In this document: in pieces, positions 24,790-59,460 of the stretch
Layout of the letters: the number at the start of each line of letters is the position of its first letter
Position numbering within the stretch: position 1 is the stretch's first letter
DNA from: Tilletia caries
Lineage: Eukaryota > Basidiomycota > Exobasidiomycetes > Tilletiales > Tilletiaceae
NCBI GenBank assembly: GCA_032718865.1
Contig: JALUTQ010000039.1
Location: 124,001-188,000 of the forward strand
Length of the DNA stretch: 64,000 nucleotides
Reading direction: 5' to 3'
Position numbers and translations under genes: made by a program
Notes under the pieces: generated by a model
Databases searched by the model: none
Told to the model about the DNA's origin: nothing
What the model saw: the letters and a program-made list of their open reading frames with translations, nothing else

Positions 24790-27700
24790 ATGGCGTCGTC
24801 TTCCGATCCCCGCACGCGCGGGACCTTCAAGCTGGACAGCATCTACGAAGGCGCACACGCCCTCGGACGCAACCGCATCCCCGTCGACCTCCTCCTCGGC
24901 CTCCTCCTCACCAAGACGGTCCTCGCGTCCGCTGCGCTCCTTGCACGCCATTGGCTGCTGACGAATCACTCGGAGGCGGCGCATGGTGTCAATACCAGCA
25001 GCAGCGACGGCGGCCTCCTTCTTTCCCATGGTGTGAGCGCATGGGCCATCACTACCCTCGCTCTCTCCATTGGCGCTGTCGTACAGGCAGTCTGGTTCCG
25101 CATCTGGGAATGGGCAGCTGTCGTCAAGCGCATGGATCCGCATCTGGCTAAATTACCACAGTGCATCGGCATCCTCGGCGCACTTGTCTTTGTCCACACT
25201 CTCTTATGGATCATGACCCTCTCTCACATCCCTGCCACAAAGTGAGTATCTCTCTCTTTCCCTCTCTCTCTCTCTCTCTGTTTCCATCCCAGTACATGCC
25301 CGCTCATTTGCTCACGCTACCCTCTGTGATCTTAAAGCGTCCTCATCTTCACCCAGTACTGCGACGTCTGGGCAGCCGACATGGTCCGCTCCAACGCCAG
25401 CCGCAAATCAGCAGGCTACAGCATCCTAATCGCCATCCTCATCTCCTTCCTCGCCTCCGTCGCCTCCGGTCCCTCCGACATAACCTCCTCCTTCCTCTCC
25501 CGGCACTCCTCCTCAGCCTTCCCACCCGATTTCGATTATGATGACGAGCTGGATATGCCGAAGAGTTTGAGGGGCGCGAGGCCGGCGGGGTTGGCGCCGC
25601 CGTCGTATTTGCGCGCGGCGTCGGCTATACATGAACAGCGGGAGAAGGGCATCTTGCCTGCGGGCGCATCGTCTCCCCTTGGCGTTCTCGTCGGTCACGC
25701 CCTCCTCGTCCTGTATGCGCTTCTGACGATCGAGAAGGAGCGCGCCATGGTTGTTGCCTCGCGTGAGACGGGCGGTAGGAGGAGGGCGATGGTGTTGGCT
25801 ACGGTCGCTGCGGCTGCTATTACTGTTCCCTTCGGTATTTTGGGCTCTCTCGTGGTGAGTCTGTGTGTTCCCCCTACATATTGACTCCGTTACCCATCAG
25901 AATCTCTTACCGCCTCGCGCCGCGTCTCGAAAACCCAGGGCCTTCCCACCTTCCCTTCTCTCTCCTCCCTCACTCCTTCTCTAAACCCAGCAAACGCAGT
26001 AGGAAGCCACCTGGCCGCCTACGTTCTCATCGCTCTCGGCGTCGTCGTCCTTGACCCCCTGATGGCCACCACCCTCCAAACGCATGCCTCTGTCAAGACG
26101 GGCGTCCAGCACGGGTGGCCGATGGCTGTCCTCGCCTGTATGCTCGTCGGCTTTGTGGGCTTTGGCGTGCCGACGAGTCTGGCTACGATCTGTGCGGGCG
26201 GCTTTGTTGGCTGGGGTAAGTCAGCTGAGGAAGTTTGGCGCGTCGTAAAGACGCAGAGCATTTTGAAAACTAAGTTCCATACCTGTTCTCTCATACAGGG
26301 TTGAACAACATCTTGACGTACTCGCCCGAGTTCAACGGAGGGACCTCCTTCCAGCGGACCCATTCCCACCGTGACAGCGACCTCCGTGGCGTCGACCGCA
26401 ACGCCGACGCAGCCGTCCTCGCCAACCTCGGCCGCTCGACCCGCTCCTTCCTGACCGCCGCCCGCCGACACATCAACACCATCCTCGCCTCCCCGGACTC
26501 CCGCAAGATCTTCCAATTCCTCTGTCTCAACCTCGCCTTCATGGGCGTCCAGCTCGCATGGGGCGTCTGGACGAACTCGTTGGGTCTGATCAGCGACGCG
26601 ATCCACATGTTCTTCGACTGTGCTGCGATTGGCATGGGTCTGTTCGCGAGTGTGATGGCGAACTGGAAGACGGACGGGACGTTCACGATGGGGTATTCGC
26701 GTGTGGAGACGCTCTCGGGTTTCGCGAATGGGGTCTTTTTGATCCTGATTAGCGTGTTTATTGTCTTTGAGGCCGTGCAGCGGATCATTGAGCCGCCGGT
26801 GATGCATAATACGACGCAGCTGCTCGTGGTCAGTGGGATGGGCCTGTTGGTTAATCTGTTCGGGATGTTCGCTATGGGCGGTCATCATCATCATGGACAT
26901 GGACACAGTCATGGACACGATCATGGACACGACCACGGACATGGACATGGACACTCGCACAACATGATGGGTGTTTACCTGGTGAGTCCCTCTCCCTACC
27001 CTTCTATTTCCTGCTCTTCTTCCCTTCCCATCAGCTGAACAACCACTCCTCCTCCGCTCCTCCCCAGCACGTCATGGCCGACACCCTCGGCTCCGTAGGC
27101 GTGATCATCAGCACGCTCCTGATCGAGTACTACGGCTGGACCGGCTTCGACCCGATCGCCTCGCTCTTCATCGCCGTGATGATCGTGGGCAGCGTGATTC
27201 CGCTCGTGCTGGACGCGGGCCGGATCTTGGTGTTGGATCTGGGGGAGGAGAAGGAGAAGGAGGTGCTGGATGCGTTAGCGGAGGTGAGTTGTCGACGCCT
27301 TGCTTTTGATGGCGGTGTCCTGGGGTTCATGGAGCTTTTTGCTGATGATTCGCCGAGTTCTTTGCATAGCTTGAGCATATCGAGGGTGTCGCGTCGTATT
27401 CCAACCCTCGCTTCTGGCCCAAGGATGCCGAGAGCTACATTGGCACCATTGTGAGCAGACCTAACGCTCCTACCCTTTCCTCACGTAAAAAGGAATGCTC
27501 ATTCAACCGTGCTCCTTTCTCTCTTCGCGAACTCTTCTTCTTCGAACTGCGTGCAGAGATTACAAGTCCAAACAGTCTACCTGTCCGAAACTGACGGCCC
27601 CTCGGACAAGATCACACCAGTAACCTCGCTCCTCCCCACCTCCTCCCCCGTGCACAACTTCGGAGGGCCAAACAACAAGGGAGGCGGAGACCTCGCCACC

Positions 27701-28291
27701 GTTGTCGAACCCGAACGACTGGTCCGGACCGTGGAGCGGCATCTGAAGTCTCATATCCACGGACTGCAGAGCGTGACGGTGCAGTTGGAGCTGAGTGCGC
27801 CGTTGCGGTCGCCTGGCGGAGCTGGTGGAGGGGGAGGGGTAGGAGCAGGGAATGGAGGTCTGAGTCCTGTGGACTTGTCCCGCTCGGATAGCGGCGGCGC
27901 CGGTTACGGACTTGGACATGGGCACAGGCAGTACAGCAGCGGCGGCAACAGTAGCAGTCCGACGACAACGTTACTTCCGTACCGACCCGAGTCTAAGATC
28001 TCGCTTGCGTCGCCGGCGTATGGGCCTGGTGAGGGTGCGGGTGGTGGTGGTGGGTTCTGGGGTGGTGCGGATGCTGCGAGGGCGGGGCCGCCGAGTCGGT
28101 CCGGGTCGATGATCAGTCAGACGTCCGTTTCGCCGACGCAGAGTCGGGGTGTGGGACAGGGACTGGAAGGGAATGGGCATGCTCATGCGCATGGGAACGA
28201 GCACAACCATGGTCATGGCCACGGTCACGAGCACAGCCACGGCCACGGCCACGGCCACGGTCACGATCATTCGCATGGTCATGCTCATTAG
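24790..28291 (+). CDS. MSC2: MSC2/ZnT5-type ER zinc transporter (CDF family), intact copy A
   Basis: Seven exons: 24790-25241, 25338-25854, 25939-26215, 26299-26981, 27068-27283, 27370-27450 and 27557-28291 (986 aa). The exon 2/3 acceptor is the least certain junction. Like Msc2 and ZnT5, it has extra N-terminal membrane helices before a cation-diffusion-facilitator core that moves Zn2+ into the ER/early secretory pathway. Two zinc-binding HxxxD motifs are visible: SDAIHMFFDCAA (about residue 513) and HVMADTLGSVGV (about 644). A His/Gly-rich loop (GGHHHHGHGHSHGHDHGHDH, about 605-632) lies between, and the C-terminus is another His/Gly-rich tail (about 949-986). This is the only complete copy; fragments lie at 39.7, 46.4 and 61.1 kb. 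Confidence 0.93.
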
Positions 28292-29460
28292 TATAATCCC
28301 ACATCGTAGGACAGCCAGCCAATCTTATTTCGCTCGTAATAAAGATAATGTAGGGCGTTCACAATCCAAGTCGATCTGATCCCGCAAACGTGTTTGTCTG
28401 GCGAACACTACTGGAGAGGAGGGCGACGGAGCCAAGGAGCACAGGCCGATTAGCAGCAACGTTCTGGCTCGACTGCGATGTTAACTGCTGAGGCGTGATC
28501 GAGAAAGGCGGAAAAGTCGGGCAAGCTGGCTCGCATGAAAGAGTTGGGCAAGCTGGCGCGCATGGAAAGAGTTGGGTAAGCTGGCTCGCAGAGGCATAGA
28601 TGGGTCCTCAAGATCGCGGAGCGCATCTGCCCCATGCCATACCTTCCCTGCCAGCATTTATCTCCTCCTCCTCTTGTACCGTCCTGCGAACAGAGCGTTC
28701 CTATTACCGACCATGGGTGAGCAATACTGTGCGTATGCGAAGGAACCAGTCGCTTTGGGTTGATGGCAGCTATGTAACAAACAAATCGCTTTACTGAAGT
28801 CAGAACTTGGAAAAAAAAAAAACGTTCGGAACGTTCACAAAAAACGTTCTGCTGTTCACTCATCAGACAAGAGAAGTTATGTAAAGGGGGAGGGTGAGGA
28901 TCAGACAGTCACCACGGGATAAAGATGATATTGCGGTGGTGGACTGTGGAGAGAAAGAGCGGGAGAGAGGGAGAGAGGCAGAGAGGCAGAGAGGCAGAGA
29001 GGCAGAGAGGCAGAGAGGAAGAGCGAGGCAGGAGAACGGCGTGTATACCACCACTCTCGGAAGCAATCGGTTTGAGTAAAACAGCGGCGACGGGCCGTGC
29101 GTTTCGCCCGTGGTGCTTGATTCTTGTTCTCGACTTCAGCGAGCATGTGTTGGTCACCCTTTGATCAATTGAGTTTTCTTCGAGCGGGGTAGAGGTTCAG
29201 CTGGGCAAGGTGCGGCTGGCGAATCGAAGGCGGCGATGTCAACCTCGTAGATGGCCTTGCTTCGAGTGGTCGAGAAAGATACGAACAGCCGGCTGTGGAA
29301 CCGCAGCTCGATCCGGTGGACTCTTTAGATGAGGGCGATGGTATTGGTCGAGGGTAGTCGACAGTGGGAATAGGTTGATGGAGAGAATGTGTGGGCGAGT
29401 GCCAGGGACGGTGAGGTGGAGGGGGATCGTCGGCTGGCGACAGCGGCAGTGCAGGTGGGA
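28292..29460 (+). repeat. Module tail, copy A
   Basis: Non-coding sequence between the MSC2 stop and the secreted-protein stop. It recurs at 40811-42075, 48164-49455 and, inverted, at 58511-59460. Shared landmarks are AGCCAATCTTATTTCGCTCG, an AACGTTCGGAACGTTC palindromic stretch near 28823, AGTCACCACGGGATAAAGAT at about 28908, the GA-rich microsatellite, and the block before the SSP gene. No ORF in it is conserved in frame across copies. Confidence 0.9.
28958..29021 (+). repeat. 8-bp microsatellite (GCAGAGAG)n, copy A
   Basis: About six units of GCAGAGAG preceded by GGGAGAGA units. This is the short allele of the array that is expanded in copies B and C. Confidence 0.9.
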
Positions 29461-29476
29461 GGGCGATAGGAGCTGT

Positions 29477-29909
29477 TTAGCAATCCAAGTCCTCCTCATA
29501 GCAAATGACGCCCTTAACGCCGGAGACGACATATCCACCGAGTTTGCAGGCATTGTCGCAGAAAGCCTTGTCATTGTTGCGGTCCTTCATACAGCCGCCA
29601 TGGCAGCTGCCGTCCTCGGGATAATTGCGAATCCATGTCTTGCAAAGGCAACCAAAGTAGTTTTGCTGAAAGATTTCTTTTTGATGCTGGGTGGCAACAT
29701 TCTCTGAACCTTTGCAGTTTGCGCTCGCCTTTCGGACGCACTCGTCGACCCAGCCGGCGTTCTGCAGAAGACAATCAACACATGTAAAATCGTCAACTTC
29801 CATCTCCTACTACTTTTCGAGGGAGTTCTGAGGGTATACGTACTATGGCTGTGACGGGCCCGGAGATGACCAGGACGAGGAAGGCTGAGGTGACAATGGA
29901 GGCTCGCAT
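29477..29909 (-). CDS. Small secreted ten-cysteine protein, paralogue 1
   Basis: Minus-strand exons 29909-29844 and 29761-29477 (116 aa); intron GTACGT..GCAG. Residues 1-22 are a signal peptide (MRASIVTSAFLVLVISGPVT), and the intron falls exactly at its end. The mature part has ten Cys in the order of its paralogues at 49456 and 58083; conserved stretches are QNYFGCLCKTW, CHGGCMKDRNN and KAFCDNAC. I recognise no named family. Length, signal peptide and Cys content are those of effector-like or apoplastic proteins (inference). It is convergent with MSC2 across the repeated tail. Confidence 0.85.
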
Positions 29910-30662: not shown

Positions 30663-30690
30663 CCGTGCCGGCCCGGCGACGGTGTGTGTG

Positions 30691-32739
30691 TACTCGGGCC
30701 CAACGGTGGTTGAACGTTGTTCCCATTTTTCGCTGACACAAAAAAGCCCTCCCTCCAGGGAGGGCCTGCAAGCTCAATGAAGAATACATGCTCAATGAAG
30801 AAATCAAAGATGAGATCCATTCCATAACATTGGCAAGACCGCACAGCATCCATATTCCCTACACAGCATCAAACAGGTACTTAAAACTCACCAATGCCTT
30901 CAGCGTACCAGGAAGAAGAAGAGCGCGTTCTCTGCGCGGTAGAAGAAGCGCAAAAGTCGGAAGGCAAGATCAATCTCTCCGCCATTGCGAGAAAACATAA
31001 CGTCGATGTGCAGCGCCTCACTCGTCGCTACAACGGCAAGGCAAGCAAGAGCACGCGCGCGCCCACCAACCGGAAGCTGAACGACACAGAGGAGAAGGTG
31101 CTCTTGGCGTGGATTGGTATCCTCGACGGTCTGGAGATATCGGCTCGTCCTCGACTGATCCAGGCATCTGCAGATCAAATTCTGCGCGACGCGCACACCG
31201 ATCCAAACACGGTGCCGCTCACAGTCGGCGCGCACTGGGTAGAGAATTTCATCAAGAGGAACCCCGAGCTCAGCAAGGGCAGACAGAAGTCCAGGGAACT
31301 GTCTCGAATGACCCAGGATCATGCGACATTGCTCAGGTTCTACGAAAGGCTTCACAAGGTCATCCAGCAGCACGGAATCTTGCCGGACGATATTTGGAAC
31401 ATGGATGAGGTCGGCTTTCGTGTTGGAATTGGGGGGGAACACAATGGATAGTGACGCTCTGCCCCTCGCGAGAAGCGCACTTGGCGAGCGAAACGAATCG
31501 CGAAACGGTTACCTGCGTCGAGGCAGTCAACGCGACTGGATCGGCAATTTCTCCAATGGTCATCATGTCCGGTATTCAGCATTCCGAATCATGGACGAAC
31601 AATTCTGCGCCCGGAGACACTCTTCTTGCGGTATCAGACAAAGGCTATTCGGACGACATCTTGGCTTTGCGTTGGATCGTTCACTTCAACAATCGCACGA
31701 GACGAATGACCAAAGGATCCAAACGTCTGCTCATATTCGACGGACACGGCTCACACTGTACAAAACAGTTCATCGACTTTTTGCGACCAGCAAGAAATAA
31801 TCCCCTTCAGCTTGCCGCCACACTCCTCACATATCTTGCAGCCTCTGGACGTTGCAGTCTTCCAGCCCTACAAGCATTGGCATCGCGAGGCAATCGATGC
31901 TGCAACGAGGACTGGATGTACGAATTTCAGCAAAACCGAATTTTTGGCCGCTTTAAACGGCATCCGCATGCACACGATGAAGGCAAACACGATCAAGACA
32001 GGATTTCGCCGCACAGGAATACACCCCTATGACCCTACGCAAGTTCTCTCCAAGTATCCCAATCCTACTTCACAATCATCCATGCCGCCTCCAATTTCTT
32101 TTTCCACACCGCCGGGCTCCCCAGGTGTTCCTTCGACCCCGCGAACTATTCGCACGCTGTCCAGATCTGCTCAACAAATCGAGGATCGATATGGTCTTGA
32201 ACTCTCCCCTTCCGTGTCCAGGTTCATCCGAGGATCTCTGCAACAAGCGCGCACAGGTCAACTTGCGGTAACCGCACTTGAAGCTCAAACCTCGGCGCAG
32301 CAAGAATGACACAAGCGGAACGAACGACAGAGAAAGGTTGTACAATCTGGAGGTGTGCTGTATGCACACGAAGCGCGAGAGATTGCGAAGGAGAAAATCG
32401 AGAAGGAAAAGAGGGAGGAGGTGCGACGAGAGTGGGTGCTGTTCAAACAGGAGGCCGAGAACAGGAAGTCAAAAGGTTGGCGAAAACTGTTTACGGAGGT
32501 GCGAAGGGAGGCGATGAAGCGTAGGAGGATCGCGGATAGGCAGTGGGGTGTACAGAGTAGTCAAATTGTGGATGCAGACATGGCAGCGTCGGAGAAATGA
32601 TGTTATGGAATGGATCTCATCTTTGATTTCTTCATTGAGCATGTATTCTTCATTGAGCTTGCAGGCCCTCCCTGGAGGGAGGGCTTTTTTGTGTCAGCGA
32701 AAAATGGGAACAACGTTCAACCACCGTTGGGCCCGAGTA
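30691..32739 (+). mobile_element. Pogo-like (Tc1/mariner superfamily) DNA transposon
   Basis: Two 140-bp inverted repeats, 30691-30830 and 32600-32739 including the TA at each outer end, match almost perfectly. The outer ends read TA-CTCGGGCCCAACGGTGG and the inverse, so TA is the target duplication. Each arm contains a perfect hairpin GCCCTCCCTCCAGGGAGGGC. The interior is filled by one transposase reading path (30894-32600) whose last stop abuts the right arm. Near-identical arms imply recent insertion. Confidence 0.93.
30894..32600 (+). pseudogene. Pogo-like transposase, three lesions
   Basis: Segment 1 (30894-31451) starts with an HTH/CENPB-like region (INLSAIARKHNVDVQRLTRR, then WVENFIKRNPELSKGR) and ends just after NMDEVGFRVGIGG. 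Segment 2 (from about 31441) holds the second catalytic Asp in LLIFDGHGSH. Segment 3 (from about 31780 to 32309) has PPHSSHILQPLDVAVFQPYK, with the third acidic residue, and IKTGFRRTGIHPYDP. A Lys/Glu-rich tail continues in the same frame to 32600 after a TGA. The lesions are a one-base shift at a seven-G run (about 31431-31437), a one-base shift at a five-T run (about 31780) and the in-frame TGA at 32307. The DDE residues survive, so loss of function is recent or partly sequencing error. Confidence 0.85.
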
Positions 32740-33185
32740 GACGAAGCTGCCTCCCAAAGAGTGGTTTGTAAGGTTTCTAACGCGCCGCGTGGCAAAAGCA
32801 ACAAATCAGTTGTAACTGTCTGAGCTCAGGTTTGTAGTCCTCATTACAATGTGGTGTAAGCTTCCTGAAATGAGGAGATTGCCTTTTAGTGGGAAGATGT
32901 AGGGGTATTCGCCAGTTCTAGGCAGTAGATGAGGTACTGCAACGATACAGGAGGGGGACAGTGAGTGGGTCGGAAACTGGCAAGTTTTTGACCATGAACA
33001 CCACACCACTCGAAAACTACCTCACAAACACACAACACGCAAAGAGAAGAAACATAGCTAGCATAGAGATCTACTACCTCCCGCTTCTTTGGGGTCGTTT
33101 GATTGTGTGGTTGCTGAGAGCGAAGGTGCAGTAGATTTGTACGGTGGTGATGTTTTTGGACAGTGAGTGGGTCAATTGAATCGGG
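32740..33185. other. Repeat-flanking spacer
   Basis: No gene. It carries the word GGACAGTGAGTGGGTC at 32956 and 33158. The first, with its flank (CGATACAGGAGGGGG), recurs inverted at 39678-39706. Confidence 0.4.
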
Positions 33186-33418
33186 AGTTGGATATCTCCC
33201 CTGAACGGGCGAGAACGGGAAGCAGACAAGAGGTATCCGACGCCAAAGGAGAGTGTGGATTGTACCTAGAAGGGACTGAAGTACAAGCGGAATGCGATAT
33301 GATAGACAGGATGAAAGGTGAAGCTGAGAAGCTCAGAAGGGGAAGAAAAGGTGCTCGACAGACTACGAGACTACCGGAAGAGACCACTCCACAAGTGCGT
33401 GGACCGGTGGTTTCCAAC
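33186..33418 (+). repeat. 233-bp repeat, copy without tRNA head
   Basis: Nearly identical (two or three mismatches) to 38988-39220, same orientation, exactly 5802 bp apart. This copy lacks the tRNA-like sequence that precedes the other one, as expected for a 5'-truncated SINE. Confidence 0.85.
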
Positions 33419-36400
33419 TCTCCCACCTCGAGTACCCTGTTCTGACAATGAGGGTCGCCTAGTTGACCGTGCTGAGGCGTGTATCCTAGCTCTCCAGACC
33501 TGTAGTCGCCGGGGGTTTTATGATTCGTTATCGTACGTGTCGTAAATGAAGCGAAATGAGTGTGTGTGCGTCGACTGCTGATGCTGAAGTCGATGTGCCG
33601 AACGACGGTATGTTGATGATTGATGATTGAGCGATGAGGGGGAACCATGATAGCGCATGAGGGTGGCTCGTTGTGGATGTCAGTCCGATGGCCGTGTAAT
33701 GCAGTAATGGTGCCTGTTGCTGGCTCGGGGGTTGTCGCGCGGCGCGCCCATATGCCGATGTGTCGATGTGCCGAACCCCGACCTGCTCCCACCGTTCCTG
33801 CATGCCAACGCACTACACCACCTTGCTGATCACCGTCCACCGATAATCAGCCATATCCCACATAACCTCATCCTGCATCCATCATACACTACCGTCCTGC
33901 TCCCATGATGCCTCGCACCCTGCCATACCACCTATCCCAAGCCTGAAGCCACCAGTGCCGATGAGCCCATGTACCGTATTCCACTGACCCAAATCCAAAA
34001 ACATCCAACTTGTCGTCCTTTGTCCGGCGCTCACTGCTCGGGTGCCAGAGCACCGACTAGTCGACACCGATGGGGCCGAGCACGAGCCTGGGAGTGCGCA
34101 AGAGGGAGGAAGGATAAACAGGGTCCTGTGCTGCATGGCGTGCTGGTGGTCCTTGTTTCGCGTTTGGTGCGTGTGTCTGTGCACGGGTTCGAAGCGCTGG
34201 AGCTTCCAAGGGCATTGCACCAGTGGCCATAGATGTACTGCTCCGACGACCTGATGTATGCGTCTTGAGCGGATGTTGACCATGTGAACTTGTTGCTCGA
34301 CGTCCTGAGCGACCGAGACTTGCTGAATGGGCCGATTCTGGACGTGGTGGTGGAGCGTGAGGACTGAACGCGGGACGCGCGTTTCCTTTTGCTGTTGATG
34401 CTGCCGCCGGCGTCAATGCCGACTGCGGCCCGATCCTCCGAACCACTCGTCATCGATCGTACGGCCTATTCTTGATGCTCCCACCGCTCGCATACATCCT
34501 CATCGAGGAGATGCCACTCACACCAGCTGCTGAGACCGCCCTACAGCTCGTCCACCTAGGACTGAGCTACTGCTGTCTCGTGCCAGTCTGGTCATGCACT
34601 CCTGCCAAGCGCCAGTTTCCCAGCCCATCCGTACCACCTCTGCTCCTGCCTCCTGAGGCACGCCATTGCCGCCTCAACTGAGCATCTCCCTTCTTTCCCA
34701 TGCCCTCTCAACCATGCCATTCACTGCTCCCACCGATCCTTGTACGTCCAGCCAAGAGAAAGTCGTGCCTGGGCTGCCGCATGATTGCTCCGGACGCCGA
34801 CGACTGGTCGAGTCCCGATGAGCACGGTGGCCCGAGGAGAGAACCTTGCGTGTGGTCGTTGCAGAAGACGGTTGTCCGAGTTGTGATTGAGTTGAGACTC
34901 GAGGCCAAACAGTGGCACCAATGGCGCTCCTGCGTGGTTCGGGAAGAGGGATGCCTGTACTCCATCTGGGAGACTTCGTGCTGTGTGGTGTGATGCTGGA
35001 ACTGTGCGCTGGCTGCTGCCGTGCGTAATACCTGTCGCGGCGGCGCACGGAGAGGCTCGTGGGCCGTGTGGTGATGGTGTTGTGGTTGTTGACTTGTTGT
35101 GTTGTGTCGTTGACTCGGACCGGTTGTGAACAGCCCTATGCCGTTCCGGAGCCGAGGTCCCACTCTGCGCAGTGCGCACTACCACACCACAACTCGCACT
35201 ATCCCATACACCGCCCCAATGCCTTCCATTCTCCGCAGCCGTGCCATACTGGCTGATCAATGCGCCATGATGATGCGCTTGATTCCACGCGAAGGTTTCG
35301 CAGCTTCTCGGTTGCTGTGGACCACTTGTAATCTGTGAGCCGGCGCCGAAACGATCGGTCGCCGCTGGTGGGTGGAGCTCTGCGCACGCCATGAGTATGG
35401 TCGCTGCGCATCCCCGGGTCTCCGATGGTGCTGAGACACCGGCTGCTGCTGTCATCTGTGGACATGACTCGTTCGTGGCTGGGCAGTCTTCTTGCGCCCG
35501 ATGCTCGACGATGCCGAACCTTGATAACCCAGACGACATCGTGTCTGCGCTCTTGTGAGCTCGCTGTATGCAGCTCGACGTCGGCCTTACACGTCCGCCA
35601 TGTCTGCCGACTGCCGATTGCCGAGAGCAGGGATGCTCGCGGCTCGCTGTCTGCTGGTTGCTCCGTCGAGTAATCGAACTTGAGGCCTGAGCCCGAATGC
35701 GCCACTGATGTCCGCAGCTTGTGTTCGTCCTCCCCGCGTATGCTGCGTGAGGAGCTGCCCCGACCGCCGACGGTCCCGAGGCTGAGCGAGGAGAGAGAGG
35801 AAAGGGGAAGAAGGAATGTTGACCGCGCAAAGCAAGTCGACGGATGTCGACTCCTGCTTTCTGGTGTGGCGTGGGTGGCGGTCCTCCGAGCAATGGCTGG
35901 CTCGATCCTGAGTCGGTTCTTCAATCCTGCGGACTAGTATCCACTAGCTCCGCACGTCACCCCGTTGTGGGTGATGCTCCCGCAGCCGACCCACGCCGCG
36001 CTGCCTCTCCTGCTCGTCGTCCACCGACCACCAATACCCAAACCGATCCCCTCCTCTGCCCACAGTCGCCCAATGCCCGCATACACGTGATGATGTGTCA
36101 GGCACGCATGCCGTCGACAGGGACAGGATTCTGGGACAGAAGGAGTGTGCTTGACGCCCGAGACATGGGTAGTGACTCGGAGCGCGCGCAAAGGGAGGTA
36201 AGGCATGGTGTCAGCGTACGTCCTACAGTGTGGTGGCTCATTCTGATACTCACCGGTAGGAGGTGTCCCCATCCCGCCAAGCGGTACAAGCCGAGGCTTG
36301 GAGGCAGGGTGTGGGGACTGTGTTCCGGTCATCAACCGGACACGGTATGGCTAGTAGACCAGGGACGCCGCTCGCGCCCTGTTCGCCATCCCGGCACGAC

Positions 36401-37878
36401 GCGAAGCCGAGAGAGAGGGTGTGGTGGGTGTGGAGGAAACTGCACTGTTGTGTTGGTACATGCATGGGGAATTGCCCCGCATATATTGCGCCAATGCTAG
36501 GCTCGGCCGCGAGGCCTCACCAGACGTTCTCCTCACTCCCAATGAACTGAACCACTCGTCCATCTCTGCCGCTACCGCTGTCGCCTGAGGGAATATGCAC
36601 GCCGCCCATGCGGATGTGCTCCCTCGAACGATGCTGCTGATTGCAATCGTTCATCCTTGAGATAGCCCTGTGGGCACTTGGCCGTGGCCATGACCTTTTG
36701 GCTCCGACGGGCGTTTGTCGGATGCCACAACGCCGAACTTGCGTAGACCCGTCGATCCACGCTGGTTAGGCGCCGGGTCGACGCCAGCGATGCTACTGTG
36801 CATGCCCCCTTCACGGTCAACCCGTATCGGTGTCAGCGGCTTTTACGTCTCCGCTGCCCCACCAATCTCGTTGACATCAGCGAGGCCATATGGCCCGCGT
36901 TCCTTGCCAACCCGTCCAGCAACAACGGCGGTCCCGAGGCCGTCTTCGGTCGCCAGGTCCCGACCCAGGTGTCCTGTGTCGGTCGCCCGAGGGAGTGATG
37001 GTGGCGATCCTCTACTCCTTCCCAGACTACATGTATGATGGAACCAGGACAGGCGCGTACCAGCCGCCCTGTCCCCCGTTTGTACGACTCTTGTCGACCG
37101 AGTCGTATTGCCTGTGCCGGGCATGATCTTGTCGGCGAGGACTGCCATTCCTCGTGCGCCCACGCGCGCATCGAGAGCAGCTCGAGCCCCGGTGCCTTCT
37201 TGAAATTGATGCACGGCTCGGTGTCGCGTCGCAGAAGGTGCTTGTCGTCTTCGGTTTTGGCGGGTCTTCGACCTGTATTTCCATTCGCCAGACCGAGTGC
37301 ATCTTCTGCCTTGAAGTTGAGGTCCACCAATGTGCTGGTACCTCTCGCGTCTTCCGTGCTTGGGCTCATGTTCTTGCGCCAAGCCGAAGACCGCCAACCG
37401 GCTCCATCACGTCGCAGGAGAGCTTGCGCCGCTCCCTGTCTGCCGCAGACCGTGACCTATGAGCGGAAACCGGAATGTGTTGGAGTGTCGGAAGCTTGAG
37501 ACCTGAAGTCGTCTCTGCCTCGTTCCGCTCCCGAATGATCTCCGACCTTGCGAGCGCGCCCAACAGCATCCTTGGGTCGCCATCGGTGGATCCTTGAGTC
37601 GCCGAGCACTGCTGGTCACCGTAAACTGCTGGTGCCCTGCCTGCCGCTCGCGCGCCTTGACCTGGGATCCGAGGTGAATGGATCCCGACCTTGCCTTGCG
37701 CCGAGCCGTAGGAGCTTGCCAGTGACGGCATCGAGCTCCTCCTTGCTGCTCAGGCGCTGGACCGTAGGTCTCCGCGCGGTGCTCGCCGCCGAGACACCGC
37801 TTCCACACGTAGTGGACTCCGTCGCCGCAATCCGTCCCATTCCTCCTATGTGGTGTCCGTGGGCCATCTGCCCTGGTA
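33419..37878. other. 4.5 kb without recognisable gene
   Basis: Many overlapping ORFs occur on both strands, the longest about 390 codons on the minus strand (34721-35893). None shows a domain, a signal peptide or a credible composition. Codon-like periodicity is broken repeatedly, which suggests an old, mutated repeat such as a retroelement, but I found no reverse transcriptase, integrase or protease motif to prove it. Confidence 0.4.
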
Positions 37879-37886
37879 CCGGCCAC

Positions 37887-38683
37887 TAAGGATGGGCGCG
37901 GAGTAAGCCCCGGAGTGGGTTTCCCGGAGTTCCCCGACTAGTCGGGGCCTCACTCCGGGGGAGTACAGAGTACGGAGTGCATTTTCGAGGATTTACTCCC
38001 GCTGATTGAATTCTGCAGGAGTACGGAGCGCAAGCCTGTCATGTCCCCGGAGTACGGAGTACGGCAAGGCCTGGAGCTGATTTTTCCCCGGAGTACGGAG
38101 TGACTAGCTCGAATGCCAGACGGAGTGCGGAGTTTCGCCGAAACTCCGGGGCGCTCCGGGGCCGTCCCTTTTTCAAAATCAGGTCGCAATTTTTTTAAAA
38201 TTTCAGTCAGAAATGGTCATATTTTGCTCTGATTTTTCAAAAAAAATTTAGCAAAAATTCTTTTTCAGACTTCTTATTTGGGGTTCATATTGTGTGTTGT
38301 TGAGCTGTACGACTGCCAACGATGATTCTGTCGAACAAACACGTGGATGGAAGGGCGGCAATCAATGTAAGGGTCCCGATTTCTCAAGTTTTTGTAGGAC
38401 CTCTGCGAACGTTCCCCGGAGTACGGAGTTTCGGGGGGAGTAGTCGCGCTCCGTCACCCCGGAGTGCGGAGTGGACTTTGAAATTTATTGAAATTTAGCC
38501 GGAGTACGGAGCTGGCGCAATGAGATGGGGAGATTTTGTGCGGAGCGCGGAGTGGAGTTGGGGCGACTGCCTAAAAATGAGCGGAGTACGGAGCGCGAAA
38601 ATGCATCTGAAAATCAGCCGGAGTCAGCCGGAGTAGGGGCCCCGGAGTACGGAGCACTCCGGGGCCCTCCGCGCCCATCCTTA
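37887..38683. mobile_element. hAT-type non-autonomous element with 8-bp target duplication
   Basis: A 797-bp element bounded by TAAGGATGGGCGCGGAG and its inverse; the 17 terminal bases are perfect and similarity continues (CCCCGGAGTG). It is flanked by exact direct repeats CCGGCCAC at 37879-37886 and 38684-38691, an 8-bp duplication typical of hAT transposons. There is no ORF of note. The subterminal parts carry at least seven copies of GGAGTACGGAG, all on the plus strand, around an AT-rich core (about 38165-38390). Confidence 0.88.
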
Positions 38684-38691
38684 CCGGCCAC

Positions 38692-38948
38692 CGTATCGAA
38701 AACCTTGCTGCGCCGTTCTTGACCGAGGGCCGAAGGCTGCCGAAGCTTGAAGCTGGCCGATTTGCGCAGAGTCGCGCTACTGCTTGACTAAAGATCGGCG
38801 CGTCGGACTCTTGTAAGCGCGCAGGGTACCGACCGCGTTCCGAAGCGCACCAGCTGTCTGTAGGGGAAAGGGAAAGAGAGAAAGGATGGAACTTGACGAT
38901 ATCCTTGACAGAGTGTCGGCCCTGGAGCTCTTGTCTTGGGCTCTTGGG
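38692..38948. other. Spacer right of the hAT element
   Basis: It continues the sequence interrupted by the element; no gene is seen. Confidence 0.3.
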
Positions 38949-39220
38949 GCTCCTGTAGCTCAGTGTAGAGCTCTTGGACTCATAACCAGTTGGATATCTC
39001 CCCTGAACGGGCGAGAACGGGAAGCAGACAAGAGGTATCCGACGCCAAAGGAGAGTGTGGATTGTACCTAGAAGGGACTGAAGTACAAGCGGAATGCGAT
39101 ATGATAGACAGGATGAAAGGTGAAGCTGAGAAGCTCAGAAGGGGAAGAAAAGGTGCTCGACAGACTACGAGACTACCGGAAGAGACCACTCCACAAGTGC
39201 GTGGACCAGTGGTTTCCGAC
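38949..39220 (+). mobile_element. tRNA-Met-headed SINE-like repeat
   Basis: Positions 38949-38988 read like the 5' half of an elongator tRNA-Met: an acceptor-like 7-mer, TA, a D-arm GCTC-AGTGTA-GAGC (with box A TAGCTCAGTGTAG), then TTGGACTCATAA with the CAT anticodon. The 3' side of the anticodon stem is already degenerate (CCAG). The sequence runs directly into the 233-bp repeat shared with 33186-33418. No intact T-arm follows, so this is not a functional tRNA gene. Confidence 0.55.
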
Positions 39221-39713
39221 TTCGGGCGATCGATCGCGAAGCTCTTCTGAGTGAAGTTTGTCTCATCCAAAAGCGCTCATGCCGGATCGAACATCGACCC
39301 CCCAAAACTCGCTAACCACCCCTGCACTCCAGACCACCCAGCTCCTCAACCAGTGGACCAATTCACCTCAATACACCTGCTACGTTTTCTTCTTAGATAG
39401 TACTCCAAACTCTTTCTCTGTTCTGGCACTGCTTATTCAGGTGGATTTGGTGTGGTTGGTGTTCAAAGTCGTTGTACAATTTTTTTTCAATGAATCTCGA
39501 AATCTCAGATCGACCTCGACCTGCTCGAAGCACCATAGCTCAGCCGTTAGCAAGGAAAGTACGTCTCAAATTTGCATGGCGGGGTCGCTGTGGGCTAGGG
39601 GATACAGTCCATGTGTTTGCGGCTACTTTTGTTGTGTTGTGTGGGAGTTATGGTGACCGACCCACTCACTGTCCGACGACCCACTCACTGTCCCCCTCCT
39701 GTATCGCCGAGGC
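39221..39713. other. Spacer with short repeats at the copy B breakpoint
   Basis: No gene. Two GACCCACTCACTGTCC words (39659 and 39678) lie just left of the point where MSC2 homology starts (39714). Confidence 0.4.
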
Positions 39714-42129: not shown

Positions 42130-42352
42130 TGCTTCCATCAGTCCTGGAGATATCTTCTCCGCGAGCGCATTGATCTGTCCATAAAGCGTCGTTGTTGCGA
42201 TTCCTCATGCAGCCATCATGGCAGCTAGGGCTATTACCATCGGGCTTGCAATTGAGTCAACCATTGGTCATCCACCGGACGCAAAGGAAACCAAAGTAGG
42301 TTTCCTGCGAAGCGTTGACCTGATCTTTGTTGGCCCCATGCTGCATGCAAGC
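42130..42352 (-). pseudogene. Secreted ten-cysteine protein, dead paralogue
   Basis: One minus-strand frame retains family landmarks: ETYFGFLC (the first of the paired Cys is now Phe), CHDGCMRNRNNDA and a final CARGED. A TGA at 42257-42259 interrupts it, the FCD motif is lost, and no signal-peptide exon lies upstream. It occupies the position next to tail B where the intact paralogues sit in copies A and C. Confidence 0.82.
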
Positions 42353-46379: not shown

Positions 46380-48163
46380 TTGCAAATAAGCCGCAAGAGC
46401 TTCCAGTTCCTCTGTCTCAAATCTCAAGCTGGCCTTCAGGGGTTGCCAGCTCGCGTAGGACGTCTGGGCGAACTTGTTGATCAGCGACGCGATCCACATG
46501 TTCTTCGACTGTGCTGCGGTCGGCATGGGTCTGTTCACCAGTGTGATGGCGAACTGGAGGACGGACGGGACGTTCACGATGGGGTATTCCCGTGTGGAGA
46601 CGCTTTCTGGGGTTGCGAATGGGTTCTTCCTGATCATTAGCGTGTCATCGGCTTCGCTCCGTGCAGCGGATCATTGAGCCACCGGTGATGCATAATACGA
46701 CGCAGCTGCTCGTGGTCAGTGGGATGGGCCTGTTGGTTAATCTGTTCGGGATGTTCGCTATGGGCGGGCATCATCATCATGGACATGGACACAGTCATGG
46801 ACACGATCATGGACACGACCACGGACATGGACATGGACACTCGCACAACATGATGGGTGTTTACCTGGTGAGTCCCTCTCCCTACCCTTCTATTTCCTGC
46901 TCTTCTTCACATCCACCGAAACACTACTCCTCCTCCTCCGCTCTTTCGCAGCACGTCATGGCCGACACCCTCGGCTCCGTAGGCGTGATCATCAGCACGC
47001 TCCTGATCGAGTACTACGGCTGGACCGGCTTCGACCCGATCGCCTCGCTCTTCATCGCCGTGATGATCGTGGGCAGCGTGATTCCGCTCGTGCTGGACGC
47101 GGGCCGGATCTTGGTGTTGGATCTGGGGGAGGAGAAGGAGAAGGAGGTGCTGGATGCGTTAGCGGAGGTGAGTTGTCGACGCCTTGCTTTTGATGGCGGT
47201 GTCCTAGGGTTCATGGAGCTTTTTGCTGATGATTCGCCGAGTTCTTTGCATAGCTTGAGCATATCGAGGGTGTCGCGTCGTATTCCAACCCTCGCTTCTG
47301 GCCCAAGGATGCCGAGAGCTACATTGGCACCATTGTGAGCAGACCTAACGCTCCTACCCTTTCCTCACGTAAAAAGGAATGCTCATTCAACCGTGCTCCT
47401 TTCTCTCTTCGCGAACTCTTCTTCTTCGAACTGCGTGCAGAGATTACAAGTCCAAACAGTCTACCTGTCCGAAACTGACGGCCCCTCGGACAAGATCACA
47501 CCAGTAACCTCGCTCCTCCCCACCTCCTCCCCCGTGCACAACTTCGGAGGGCCAAACAACAAGGGAGGCGGAGACCTCGCCACCGTTGTCGAACCCGAAC
47601 GACTGGTCCGGACCGTGGAGCGGCATCTGAAGTCTCATATCCACGGACTGCAGAGCGTGACGGTGCAGTTGGAGCTGAGTGCGCCGTTGCGGTCGCCTGG
47701 CGGAGCTGGTGGAGGGGGAGGGGTAGGAGCAGGGAATGGAGGTCTGAGTCCTGTGGACTTGTCCCGCTCGGATAGCGGCGGCGCCGGTTACGGACTTGGA
47801 CATGGGCACAGGCAGTACAGCAGCGGCGGCAACAGTAGCAGTCCGACGACAACGTTACTTCCGTACCGACCCGAGTCTAAGATCTCGCTTGCGTCGCCGG
47901 CGTATGGGCCTGGTGAGGGTGCGGGTGGTGGTGGTGGGTTCTGGGGTGGTGCGGATGCTGCGAGGGCGGGGCCGCCGAGTCGGTCCGGGTCGATGATCAG
48001 TCAGACGTCCGTTTCGCCGACGCAGAGTCGGGGTGTGGGACAGGGACTGGAAGGGAATGGGCATGCTCATGCGCATGGGAACGAGCACAACCATGGTCAT
48101 GGCCACGGTCCCCAGCACAGCCACGGCCACGGTCACGATCATTCGCATGGTCATGCTCATTAG
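46380..48163 (+). pseudogene. MSC2 3' fragment, copy C
   Basis: Homology starts inside exon 4. The first 300 bp are diverged, with deletions and frame changes (stop at 46677). From about 46680 to the TAG at 48161-48163 the sequence is almost identical to 26783-28291 of the intact gene, introns included. The second zinc motif HVMAD and both His-rich regions are kept, but the N-terminal half and the frame through exon 4 are lost. The tail is four residues shorter in its His/Gly repeats. Confidence 0.92.
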
Positions 48164-49455
48164 TATAATCCCACATCGTAGGACAGCCAGCCAATCTTAT
48201 TTCGCTCGTAATAAAGATAATGTAGGGTGTTCACAATCCAAGTCGATCTGATCCCGCAAACGTGTTTGTCTGGCGGACACTGGAGAGGAGGGCGACAGAG
48301 CCAAGGAGCACAGGCCGATTAGCAGCAACGTTCCGGCTCGACTGTGACTGCGAGCGCTGGACTGTCATTGTCATTGACGGCGCTAGAAGAGCGGGACAAG
48401 CTGGCTCGCAAAGGTATACCAGTCAAACACCGTTTCGTGTTTGACTGTAGATGGTCCCCAAGATCGCGAAGCGCATCTGCTATCTGCTATACCTTCCCTG
48501 CCAGCTTTTCGTCTCGTACTCTTGTACCGTCCCGCGAACAGAACGTTGCTTTTCTCGACCAAGAATGAATCATGTGTACTGTATGTAGGTAGCAGTCGCT
48601 TGGGTTGATGGCAGCTATGTTACAAACAAATCGCTTTCCTGAAGTCAGAACTTGGGGAAAAAAAACGTTCGGAACGTTCCCAAAAAAGTTCTGCTCTTCA
48701 CTCATCAGACAAGAGAAGCTATGTAAAGGGGGAGGGTGAGGATCAGACAGTCACCACGGGATAAAGATGATATTGCGGTGGTGGACTGTGGAGACAAAGA
48801 GCGGGAGAGAGGGAGAGAGGCAGAGAGGCAGAGAGGGAGAGAGGGAGAGAGGGAGAGAGGGAGAGAGGGAGAGAGGGAGAGAGGGAGAGAGGGAGAGAGG
48901 GAGAGAGGGAGAGAGGGAGAGAGGGAGAGAGGGAGAGAGGGAGAGAGGGAGAGAGGGAGAGAGGGAGAGAGGGAGAGAGGGAGAGAGGGAGGAGAAAGGC
49001 GTGTATATCACCACTCTCGGAAGCAATCAGGTCGACAATAAGAGCTGCGATGGACATTCTGTTGGCCTCGTGTTGCTCGGTGTTGCTCGATGAAGACCTC
49101 GACTCGAGTGAGAATGCGTTGGCCTGCGCTTTGATTCGCAGTGGCGTTCTCTTTGAGCAGGTGGAAGTACAGCTGGCCAAGGTGCGGTAGACGAATCGAA
49201 GGCGGCGATGTCAGCCTCATAGATGGCCTTGCTTCGAGTGGTCGAGAAGGATCCGAACAACCGGCCGTGGAGCTGCAGTTTGATTCTGGCAGTGTTCTTT
49301 TCTTTGAAGAGGAGAGTCGTTTTTGGCCGAGGGTGGTGGGGAATGGAGTGAATGTGCGGGCCAGTGTCAGTGCCAGGAGCGGCGAGGTGGAGGGAGATCT
49401 TTGGTTGGCGACAGCGGCAGTGCAGGTGGGCGAGCGACAGGACGATAGGAGCTGT
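48164..49455 (+). repeat. Module tail, copy C
   Basis: Collinear with tails A and B. Differences cluster at about 48340-48480 and 49025-49130, where it is clearly more diverged than B is from A. Confidence 0.88.
48804..48992 (+). repeat. 8-bp microsatellite (GGAGAGAG)n, copy C
   Basis: About 20 GGAGAGAG units with two GCAGAGAG units at the left. The expanded unit differs by one base from the unit expanded in copy B. Confidence 0.9.
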
Positions 49456-49876
49456 CTAGCATGTTGTCATCTTCTTGCAAGGGATTTTGCTGTTGTTGGG
49501 ATCTGCACCCCTACTGCAGGCCTTGTCGCAGAAAGCCTTGTTTTTGTGGTCTTTCATGCAGCCTTTATGGCAGTCTTTGTCGAGGTAATTGAGATACCAT
49601 GCCTTGCAAAGACAACCGAAGTAGTTCTCATTCCAAACTCTGGACTGTTCCGTGTTGGCCCCTTTTTGCATGCCGGCTTTGCAATTGTCGACCGCCGTAT
49701 CGTGACAGTATTTCATCCAACCCCAATTCTGCAGAGGCCAATCACAACATATGGAATGGTCAATATCCATATGCTACTATCTCTCGAGGGAGCACTGAAG
49801 TTTTACGCACTATGGCTGTGACCGGACCGAAGAAGGCCAGGACGAGGAAGGCTGAGGTGATGACGGCGGCTCGCAT
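49456..49876 (-). CDS. Small secreted ten-cysteine protein, paralogue 2
   Basis: Minus-strand exons 49876-49811 and 49728-49456 (112 aa); intron GTGCGT..GCAG at the same place as in paralogue 1. The signal peptide is MRAAVITSAFLVLAFFGPVT. The ten Cys align with paralogue 1; shared blocks are ENYFGCLCKAW, CHKGCMKDHKNKAFCD and the late C-x(n)-C end. The mature protein differs from paralogue 1 at most non-Cys positions while the signal peptide and promoter are conserved. That contrast suggests diversification of the exported part. No known family is recognised. Confidence 0.85.
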
Positions 49877-50037: not shown

Positions 50038-50159
50038 CCTTTCATCATTCACCGAGACAGGCATCTCCCCCAGGTAGGAGAAATTAAGTCGGCTACGCGC
50101 CAAGATGGATGTAGTCAGTTCAGAGATGAGGTTACAGCGCGGCTTGTGCTACAGTATAC

Positions 50160-57805: not shown

Positions 57806-57965
57806 ACGACGCTCAACACGCTCCAGGCGAGCAACAAGTCGATCACACATCAGACACGGGGTCTCTGACTCCTTCTCACACTCCCCTTCCCCTTCCCCCT
57901 CGTCGGCTCCTTCTGACCAACGTTGAAGCGCTAATCATCTCCCCATTTTCACAGCTCTCGATTGC
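57806..57965 (+). repeat. Promoter segment of secreted protein 3, duplicated at 62360
   Basis: Starts CGACGCTCAACACGCTCCAG, continues through GGCGAGCAACAAGTCGATCA and ends TTTTCACAGCTC. Its relative at 62360-62512 follows the same order with about 80-85% identity by eye. Confidence 0.8.
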
Positions 57966-58082
57966 CTTTCCCTCCCCTTCTTTCTCTCCAGTAGTCTTGT
58001 CCCCCTTCCACCCAAACACTTTGGCACTTCACATCCTGCCTCGTACATCTCTAACGTCACCCATCACCATCTACTTTGCACA

Positions 58083-58510
58083 ATGCGAGCCGCCGTTGTC
58101 ACAGCCTTCCTCGTCCTGGCCATCTGTGGTCCTGTCACAGCCGTAGTACGTGTACCCTCAGAACTCCTTCGAACAGTAGCAGGAGAACGAAGTTGACCGT
58201 TCTCTGTGTTGATTGTCTTCTGCAGAACACCGACTGGGCTGACGGATGTTACCAGCGAGCAACTCGCTCTTGTGCAAAAGGCATGCAGTCCGGAGCCACC
58301 AAGGAACTGAACGACGCTTGGCAGCGAAACTACTTCAGCTGCCTTTGCAACAAATGGGCAGACCTTCAACCTGGTTCGCACTGCGAGGAAGGCTGCATGA
58401 AAGATCGCAACGACAAGCATTACTGCGACTATGCCTGCGCACGCGGGGGAGATTTCGAAATACCTGTGGGGGGCATGTTGGCATTCTGCAAGCTCCCAGT
58501 CCGTTGCTAG
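58083..58510 (+). CDS. Small secreted ten-cysteine protein, paralogue 3
   Basis: Exons 58083-58145 and 58226-58510 (115 aa); intron GTACGT..GCAG after the signal peptide, as in paralogues 1 and 2. The signal peptide is MRAAVVTAFLVLAICGPVTA. The ten Cys keep family spacing; shared blocks are QRNYFSCLCNKW, CEEGCMKDRND and YCDYACARGG. It is the only copy on the plus strand, because its whole module is inverted. An internal Lys-rich stretch is lacking and function is unknown. The three mature sequences are all different, while the splice sites and 3' flank are conserved. Confidence 0.86.
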
Positions 58511-59460
58511 ACAGCTCGCATCGCCCCGTCGCTCGTCCACCTGCACTGTCGCTGTCGCCAACCGAAGATCTTCCTCCACCTCGCCGTCCCTGGCACTCGC
58601 CCACACATTCTGCCCATCAACCTATTCCCATTCTCCGCCACCCTCGATCAATACAACTCCCCCCTTCAAAACAATCCACCAAATTGAGCAGCAGCTCCAC
58701 GGTCGTTTGTTCGGATCCCCTCCGACCACTCGAAGCAAGGCCAACCACGAGGTTGACATCCCCGCCTTCGATTTGCCAGCCGCACCCTGGCCGAAGAGAA
58801 CTCCTCTGCGAATCAAAGGGAAAGCCAACACATACTTGCTCAAGTCGAGGACAGGATCGAGCAACATGAGCGAAACGCAAGGCCGTCGCAGCTGTTACTG
58901 TCGGATGGATTGCTTCCGAGAGTGGTGACATACACACCCCTCCCCTCTCTCCCTCTCTCCCTCTCTCCCTTTCTCCCTCTCTCCCTCTTGTCTCCCGCTC
59001 TTTATCTCCACCACCGCAATACTATTATTACTCCATGACGAACCCTTGGTACTCACGCCTCACCCTCCTACTTATTCCTCTTGTCCGATACATGAACAGC
59101 AGAACGTTTTTAAGAACGCTCCGAACGTTTCTTTTCCGAGTCCTACATAACTTCAGGAAATGAATTTTTTGTTGCCTGCCATGATATCTACATACAGCAT
59201 CGCTCACCCATGACTCGAGAAAAGGAACGCTCTGTTCGTAGGGCAGGACGAGGGAAGGATGCAAAGGCTGGTAGAGTAGGTATATCATATTATAGCAGAT
59301 GCGCTTCGCAATCTTGAGAACACCACATACCTCTGCGAGCCAGCTTGCTTAGTGCTTCCAACGTCTTCGATCACACCTCAGCGATCGACATCGCAGTCGA
59401 GCCGGAACGTTACTGATAATCGGTTTGCGCTCCTTGGCTCTGTCGCTTTCCAGATCATCT
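58511..59460 (-). repeat. Module tail, inverted copy D
   Basis: Reverse complement of the tail at about 28425-29470, from the secreted-protein stop through a shrunken CCCTCTCT array (58942-58990) and AACGTT-rich part to TTGGCTCTGTCG near 59450. MSC2 exons are absent beyond it. It is the most diverged of the four tails. Confidence 0.85.

What the first reader, a model, noticed from the sequence alone, without database searches (positions are those of the whole stretch)
26783..59460. A gene-end plus secreted-protein module copied four times within 32 kb
The unit is MSC2 3' exons, then a 1.2-1.3 kb non-coding tail, then a convergent ten-cysteine secreted-protein gene. It occurs at 27-30 kb (A), 39.7-42.4 kb (B), 46.4-50.1 kb (C) and, inverted and without MSC2, at 58.1-59.5 kb (D). 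Left breakpoints differ (inside exon 5 in B, inside exon 4 in C), so the copies are not simple unequal-crossover products with one junction. The transporter end seems to ride along as passenger sequence while the secreted gene diversifies. I know of no described cassette of this kind.
Basis: partly seen in the sequence, partly recalled or inferred. Interest (0 to 1): 0.82.

Follow-up and report, generated by a model that had tools for sequence, protein, structure and literature searches.

The report
Duplicated secreted-gene cluster in wheat bunt
In the wheat bunt fungus, a small secreted-protein gene has been copied again and again along one chromosome stretch, dragging along broken ends of ordinary genes it sat beside, while its protein-coding core changed faster than the DNA around it.

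Summary
The four copies are real, but the unit is not a transporter-end cassette. The genome matches the long-read assembly of Tilletia caries TC1_MSG. All copies share an orphan ten-cysteine secreted-protein gene (SP). The "non-coding tail" is a patchwork of dead gene pieces: the end of an unidentified gene X (apparently intact 40 kb from A) and a GABA-aminotransferase fragment (parent on another contig). A fifth copy, E, 115 kb beyond D, has SP, the aminotransferase piece and the gene X end, but no MSC2. The MSC2 end is only the latest layer; D carries an MSC2 5' remnant and a cutinase gene. A and B were probably neighbours about 0.5 kb apart before transposons inserted. Identity is stepwise: A and C are identical for 904 bp across introns and exons, then mostly 61-87%. 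This fits recent gene conversion over old copies. Among A, C, D and E the SP mature exon is 1.7-2.6 times more diverged than all flanking non-coding DNA, though not clearly more than the distal tail in pairs with E. B's SP gene is broken. Best reading: a birth-and-death cluster of an effector-like gene, resembling a primate core duplicon in miniature.

The parts
24790..28291 (+). MSC2-type zinc transporter gene, copy A, intact reading frame, 7 exons, 986 aa
   Evidence: Exon model; Cation_efflux E 5e-34; 98% to a T. controversa protein, 75% to a T. horrida protein named putative zinc transporter msc2; only full copy found in the genome
28411..28720 (+). Decayed 3' end of gene X in tail A (two blocks 28411-28548 and 28603-28720; about 346 bp of the parent missing between them)
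   Evidence: DNA match to the parent at C34:192-195 kb, 74% and 71%
29017..29301 (-). Decayed 4-aminobutyrate aminotransferase fragment in tail A
   Evidence: 75% to the parent at C35:865.8-868.7 kb; parent is Aminotran_3, best PDB matches GABA aminotransferase
29477..29909 (-). SP-A, ten-cysteine secreted-protein gene, 2 exons, 116 aa
   Evidence: Gene model; identical to P0001 annotated in T. laevis
39714..40809 (+). MSC2 3' fragment, copy B (from inside exon 5)
40930..41239 (+). gene X end fragment, copy B
41629..41917 (-). aminotransferase fragment, copy B
   Evidence: 76% to the parent
42137..42337 (-). SP-B, broken relic (in-frame stop, no model found)
46391..48163 (+). MSC2 3' fragment, copy C (from inside exon 4; first 270 bp degraded, the rest nearly identical to A)
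48280..48592 (+). gene X end fragment, copy C
48979..49275 (-). aminotransferase fragment, copy C
   Evidence: 76% to the parent
49456..49876 (-). SP-C, intact, 112 aa
   Evidence: a T. controversa protein differs at 2 residues (P0002)
58083..58510 (+). SP-D, intact, 115 aa
58692..58943 (+). aminotransferase fragment, copy D
59216..59451 (-). gene X end fragment, copy D (nearly the same left edge and the same internal gap as A-C)
59723..60472 (-). Cutinase gene lying between the D tail and the MSC2 5' remnant
   Evidence: Pfam Cutinase E 2e-22; paralogue at C22:1035 kb, 79%
61131..61912 (-). MSC2 5' remnant of copy D
   Evidence: 70% to 24667-25519
61970..62700 (+). Aminotransferase 3' end and downstream flank beside copy D (a second piece at 57782-57976)
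   Evidence: 68% and 73% to the C35 parent locus
30688..32742 (+). Tc5/pogo-type transposon between A and B (143-bp inverted ends, 99%, TA on both sides)
32948..39701 (.). Short inverted-repeat element with TA on both sides, enlarged by a nested LTR-like element (234-bp repeats, 99%); abuts the left edge of copy B

Best explanation
This is a birth-and-death cluster of an effector-like orphan gene (SP) that spreads along one chromosome stretch by segmental duplication.

SHOWN: five copies (A-E) share SP plus a dead aminotransferase piece. Four (A-D) share one gene X remnant with one internal gap. Two (B, C) also carry MSC2 3' exons like those of A. Identity among A, B and C is patchy. The SP mature exon is more diverged than the non-coding DNA around it.

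INFERRED: successive rounds copied SP together with what lay at its 3' side. First this was an aminotransferase fragment, then the end of gene X, then the end of MSC2, so the tail is a layered record of former neighbours. Ectopic gene conversion then re-homogenised the MSC2 and tail parts of A, B and C. Such tracts were not kept in the SP exon, where diversifying selection favours differences. Transposons inserted later and pushed A and B apart. Some copies died (B, and remnant H). The SP product is probably secreted, disulphide-rich and acts at the host interface; that last step is untested.
For: Copies and passengers. Shared gene X gap in A-D but not E. Patchy identity: A-C run of 904 bp at 27323-28226 (part of intron 5, exon 6, intron 6, most of exon 7), A-B 539, B-C 664, each 0 of 2000 shuffles; A-D run of 28 bp, reached in 185 of 2000. 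The A-B tract ends at 29459, 18 bp from the SP-A stop codon at 29477. SP mature exon against neighbouring non-coding DNA (aminotransferase piece, 3' flank, intron, 5' flank): ratio 2.3-3.0 and 2.2-2.8 on a re-alignment; with the distal tail added 1.7-2.6, lower 95% bound at least 1.3 in 6 of 6 pairs. Site model with positive selection better than without, 2 dlnL 17.5-18.5 over three trees (home-made code). A-B spacer without the insertions is 463 bp. SP family found only in T. laevis, T. controversa and T. caries, 5 proteins. Nine cysteine columns invariant in six members, ten in four.
Against: Against the distal, gene X-derived part of the tail alone, the SP exon is faster in the three pairs among A, C and D (1.9-2.4) but not distinguishably so in the three pairs with E (1.2-1.3, intervals include 1). 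Third codon positions of the SP exon (p 0.43-0.47) also exceed the adjacent flanks, so amino-acid selection alone does not explain the contrast; younger, converted flanks, a higher mutation rate or misalignment may contribute. The one-ratio model gives omega 0.41-0.42. D's cutinase joins at nearly the same base as MSC2 does in A, which the layering model does not predict. Secretion, expression and host role are untested. No other Tilletia genome could be compared for gene order.
Confidence: 0.75

Rival explanations
1. A defined mobile cassette (transposon that captured gene ends, such as a Pack-type TIR element or Helitron) copies the module.
For: Four copies share nearly the same left edge of the gene X fragment; transposons are abundant and one abuts B.
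Against: Right edges of similarity differ between copies. E keeps a much longer gene X piece. No inverted repeats of 10 bp or more were found at the unit ends in A or C. The TA-flanked element beside B is an insertion near the junction, not a border shared by the copies.
Confidence: 0.07
2. Assembly or polishing artefact: copies B and C, or their near-identity to A, were produced by the assembler.
For: Short-read polishing (POLCA, per PMC10684912) can make very similar repeats more alike.
Against: The matching assembly is from 317x Nanopore reads (passage of PMC10684912). C and D differ from A by 13-46% in most windows of tail and SP, B differs from A by 38-56% in the SP region, and the flanks are distinct. 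A T. controversa protein matches SP-C at all but 2 residues, so SP-C exists in another species.
Confidence: 0.06
3. Ordinary recent tandem duplications without gene conversion: B and C are young copies of A's MSC2 end, joined by chance to older SP copies.
For: A and B are adjacent once insertions are removed.
Against: A-C identity alternates along one colinear block: 98-100%, then 61-71%, then 93-98%, then 70-87%. C's MSC2 left end is itself degraded (75-95% with indels). Several separate joins at homologous positions would be needed.
Confidence: 0.12

Closest known systems
Primate core duplicons (NPIP/LCR16a)
   Same: A core gene shared by all blocks, mosaic flanks made of parts of other genes, spread mainly along one chromosome, fast evolution of the core gene (passages of PMC7419210 and PMC6920530)
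   Different: Here the blocks are 1.8-4 kb, whereas the cited passages speak of flanking segments of about 15 to 180 kb; the copies are old (about 70-80% outside converted tracts); the core is a small secreted protein in a fungus
Smut effector clusters (Ustilago hordei UhAvr1 locus, U. maydis cluster 19A)
   Same: Clustered small secreted-protein genes among transposons with TE-assisted change (passages of PMC4081816)
   Different: No non-Tilletia relative of SP was found in the searches run. The passages seen do not describe gene-end hitchhiking. In T. controversa OR, effectors were reported as not clustered (PMC9172201 passage)
Accelerated venom-gland isozyme genes (snake phospholipase A2)
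   Same: Coding exon more diverged than introns and flanks (a recalled pattern; of PMC4280545 only the listing and passages were seen, and they do not state it)
   Different: Different protein and organism. Third positions here are raised too, so selection is not the whole cause
TcSCP_9014, T. controversa effector
   Same: Small cysteine-rich secreted Tilletia protein
   Different: 146 aa and six cysteines (PMC11174917 passages) against 112-125 aa and ten mature cysteines in SP A, C, D, E and G

Membership tests
Core duplicon | One core segment present in every block | tested here: met
   SP is present in all five tail-bearing copies A-E (broken in B) and as a promoter/signal remnant in H
Core duplicon | Mosaic flanks derived from other loci, including parts of genes | tested here: met
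   Aminotransferase (C35 parent), gene X (C34:193 kb parent), MSC2 (A)
Core duplicon | Copies largely on one chromosome | tested here: met
   The composite copies found lie on contig C34 between 152 and 299 kb; SP-only relatives are on C28
Core duplicon | Positive selection on the core gene | tested here: inconclusive
   2 dlnL 17.5-18.5 for M2a over M1a but M0 omega 0.41-0.42; third positions raised too; yardstick-dependent ratio
Core duplicon | Large, recent (high-identity) interspersed blocks as in primates | tested here: not met
   Blocks 1.8-4 kb; about 70-80% identity outside converted tracts. So it works like a core duplicon but is not filed as one
Small cysteine-rich secreted effector | Short, cysteine-rich | tested here: met
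   112-125 aa in the A, C, D, E, G models; nine cysteine columns invariant in six members, ten in four
Small cysteine-rich secreted effector | Functional signal peptide / secretion | not testable with these tools
   A conserved hydrophobic N-terminus is visible; no predictor or assay available
Small cysteine-rich secreted effector | Lineage-restricted orphan | tested here: met
   5 proteins, all Tilletia laevis, caries or controversa (the search needs shared 5-residue words); no Pfam family above its cut-off for SP-A, C, G
Small cysteine-rich secreted effector | Expression and action in the host | not testable with these tools
   No expression data
Gene-capturing transposon (Pack-TIR / Helitron) | Fixed shared termini on both sides | tested here: not met
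   Right edges and E's left edge differ; no inverted repeats of 10 bp or more at the unit ends in A and C
MSC2 zinc transporter | Cation efflux domain and full-length similarity | tested here: met

The most novel reading that the evidence does not exclude
A fungal core duplicon with built-in division of labour: ectopic conversion keeps promoter, signal exon and near 3' region of the SP copies alike (they are less diverged than the distal tail), while the mature exon is spared (or mutates faster), so the cluster keeps a common expression frame and diversifies only the cargo. The embedded dead aminotransferase piece would be a ready clock for it.
Probability: 0.25. Interest if true: 0.72.

Novelty: new variant of a known kind. 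Interest (0 to 1): 0.5.

Why it matters
It gives a readable order of events for the birth of an effector-like cluster in a genus where one survey reported no effector clustering (T. controversa OR; PMC9172201 passage). Each dead gene end is a layer in that order. The pseudogene pieces inside each copy serve as internal yardsticks against which diversification of the secreted protein can be measured. It also warns that MSC2 fragments and dead exons in such regions can be mis-annotated as genes or taken for a functional cassette.

Tried and rejected
Tail as a novel non-coding element: rejected; much of it resolves into gene X, aminotransferase and SP 3' flank. RNA families: 0 matches at gathering score in the window (4227 families). 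tRNA: 0.

Fixed mobile unit: no shared termini found.

Gene X identity: no Pfam, no PDB sequence match at E <= 0.01. NG86 dS values (0.87-1.30) were not used as a clock because they are near saturation; YN00 failed for 3 of 6 pairs. Synonymous differences at conserved codons were 59 of 206.

Yardstick for the SP exon: my first pool left out the gene X part and distal tail.

Direction of conversion: one repeat-rich stretch of MSC2 exon 7 in B resembles the T. controversa protein more than A and C do. This hints that the A-C state is derived, but P0006 has a different C-terminus and two other B residues do not follow, so it was left open.

Literature: "core duplicon", fungal, effector: the listing shows one paper holding all three terms, on a human proteome. 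Tilletia caries with gene conversion: 2 papers, listing only. Listings (5 papers; 4; 5) showed no title on this arrangement; two searches returned 0 papers. These searches cover only the held open-access library.

My notes (entry 3) say 17 copies of a repeat in D's insert; the table shows 15 near-full rows plus one partial. The report uses 15.
Full report
WHERE IT IS. The window is G000:C34:124001-188000 of a 38,104,258-base, 40-contig genome. That the genome is this assembly is an inference from the match; size and contig number differ slightly. SP-A is identical to a protein annotated in T. laevis.

THE OBSERVATION. MSC2-A has an intact seven-exon frame of 986 aa with a cation efflux domain and is the only full copy found. 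Two statements need correction. The secreted gene of B is broken: only residues 22-83 of the 94-residue query are recognisable, with a stop. D is not free of MSC2: its 5' part survives at 61131-61912, 70% identical, with a cutinase gene between it and the D tail.

WHAT THE TAIL IS. Searching the whole genome with the tail and aligning the hits shows that much of it is a patchwork. Bases 28411-28720 are the decayed end of a gene X; an open frame of 665 aa at C34:192.9-194.9 kb covers the first block. Gene X has no Pfam or PDB match. Bases 29017-29301 are a decayed piece of a 4-aminobutyrate aminotransferase, whose apparently intact parent is on C35. The pieces carry frame breaks (tblastn). About 130 bp next to the stop codon recur in the other SP copies and probably belong to SP itself.

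OTHER COPIES. E, at C34:297-299 kb, has a longer decayed gene X end, the aminotransferase piece and an intact SP, but no MSC2. H, beside gene X at C34:192 kb, retains only the SP promoter and start. F and G on C28 are SP genes for which the tail search gave no match. One search listed 7 SP matches in the genome at E <= 0.1: A, B, C, D, E, F, G. Four further, weaker places appeared when G was the query (C36:701 and 709 kb, C28:1140 and 1206 kb). Of the five copies with SP and aminotransferase piece (A-E), three carry the MSC2 3' end. A, B, C and D, but not E, share an internal gap of the gene X piece and nearly the same left edge.

ORDER OF EVENTS (inferred). SP became joined to an aminotransferase fragment, then lay beside gene X, then beside MSC2; B and C were copied from the MSC2 site. 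D has extra aminotransferase flank on both sides (57782-57976 and 61970-62700), which suggests that an aminotransferase-SP tandem was once duplicated. Between A and B lie a stretch of about 180 bp bounded by inverted repeats, a Tc5/pogo-type transposon, and a TA-flanked short element that appears to be enlarged by a nested LTR-like element. Without them the A-B spacer is 463 bp, so they were probably neighbours in tandem.

MOSAIC IDENTITY. In 100-column windows A-C runs at 75-95% up to 26780, 98-100% to about 28460 (except one window at intron 4, 85%), 61-71% to 28760, 93-98% to 28950, then 70-87%, and 54-70% across the SP mature exon. A-B is 92-100% from 27198 to 29459 and then falls to 44-62%. 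The longest identical runs were 904 (A-C), 539 (A-B) and 664 (B-C) bp, with 0 of 2000 shuffles reaching them. For A-D the run was 28 bp, reached in 185 of 2000 shuffles, so D shows no recent exchange with A. The 904-bp run spans introns as well as exons, so it reflects recent copying, not coding constraint. The A-B tract stops 18 bp short of the SP-A stop codon at 29477. Patchy identity in a colinear block is the usual sign of gene conversion; direction is not settled. Short-read polishing may have sharpened identities near 97-100%, but should not create such blocks out of 75% similar sequence.

A FAST CORE. Among A, C, D and E the mature exon differs by 40-44% of bases. The aminotransferase fragment differs by 20-27%, the 3' flank by 13-19%, the 5' flank by 12-22%, the intron by 15-31%, the signal exon by 11-15% and the gene X block by 23-33%. 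The corrected ratio of mature exon to the pooled adjacent non-coding DNA (without gene X) is 2.3-3.0, 95% lower bounds at least 1.75, in 6 of 6 pairs. A re-alignment that adds the distal tail gives 1.7-2.6, lower bounds at least 1.3, in 6 of 6 pairs. Against the distal gene X-derived part alone the ratio is 1.9-2.4 for the three pairs among A, C and D, but 1.2-1.3 with intervals including 1 for the three pairs with E, where alignment is uncertain. Restricting the exon to 71 well-anchored codons still gives 35-42%. A codon site model (home-made, four sequences, 86 codons) prefers a class with omega above 1 (2 dlnL 17.5-18.5 over three trees), but the one-ratio estimate is 0.41-0.42 and branch lengths are saturated. 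Third positions are raised as well (0.43-0.47), while synonymous differences at conserved codons are 59 of 206. My reading is that two things act together: selection for change in the protein, and near flanks made younger by conversion. A local rise in mutation rate is not excluded.

WHAT SP MAY DO. It has a conserved hydrophobic start with an intron after it; nine cysteine columns are invariant in six members and ten in four. Searches of 5.8 billion proteins found only T. laevis, T. controversa and T. caries members (5 proteins), whereas MSC2 is found in T. indica, T. horrida and T. maclaganii too; the search misses relatives without shared short words. SP-C has a T. controversa counterpart differing at two residues, so the duplication that made it is older than the split of these bunts. 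A four-sequence model is mostly helical at moderate confidence with no clear PDB relative. An effector role is plausible and untested.

COMPARISON. The arrangement works like the core duplicons of primates, where a fast gene is shared by all blocks and the flanks are mosaics of gene parts (passages of PMC7419210 and PMC6920530). It fails the size and recency part of that definition, so it is not filed as one. Clusters of secreted genes shaped by transposons are known in smuts (UhAvr1 locus, passages of PMC4081816). For T. controversa OR the survey of PMC9172201 reported no clustering of effectors (passage); here six copies of the family (A-E and H), two of them dead (B, H), lie within 150 kb.

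VERDICT. Real, and well explained as a mosaic birth-and-death cluster with gene conversion; the MSC2 end is a passenger and not part of a cassette. Interest is moderate.

Noticed in passing
window 42880-43110: Short stretch between B and C that reads like a decayed Hsp70 fragment (by eye, no search run), another dead gene piece in the cluster.
   Followed up: no
window 43619-45977: Gene for a secreted-looking, cysteine-rich protein with a long Ser/Thr-rich tandem-repeat region just left of copy C; one ORF of it (44768-45832) has no Pfam match.
   Followed up: partly
genome-wide, e.g. C1:861237-861931 (L065): Motif CGACCCACTCACTGTCC occurs 48 times in the genome with 0 matches of the backward control, mostly as inverted pairs 660-690 bp apart; ends TA|CAG in the copies looked at: a short inverted-repeat element family.
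   Followed up: partly
window 33186-33419 and 38988-39221: 234-bp direct repeats, 99.1% identical, bounding about 5.6 kb; the one long ORF tested there (34724-35893) has no Pfam match. LTR-like, nested in the element above.
   Followed up: partly
window 37900-38700: Array of interspersed CCGGAGTACGGAGT-like repeats inside that element (by eye).
   Followed up: no
window 60760-60990: 230-bp piece between the cutinase and the MSC2 5' remnant occurs at 15 other places at 82-83% (a lower bound), several in pairs about 6.6 kb apart, so probably an LTR of a retrotransposon.
   Followed up: partly
window 57782-57976 and 62252-62595: Two copies of the region downstream of the aminotransferase gene flank copy D.
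   Followed up: partly
window 53271-56801: 1176-aa ORF with an endonuclease/exonuclease/phosphatase domain and weak WD40-like matches, perhaps an inositol phosphatase, between C and D.
   Followed up: no
C36:701098, C36:709748, C28:1140510, C28:1206533-1206856: More distant, weakly matching relatives of the secreted-protein family.
   Followed up: no
window 27862-28260 vs 40381-40790: MSC2 exon 7 in copy B stays in frame with in-frame indels and partly resembles the T. controversa protein more than A does.
   Followed up: partly
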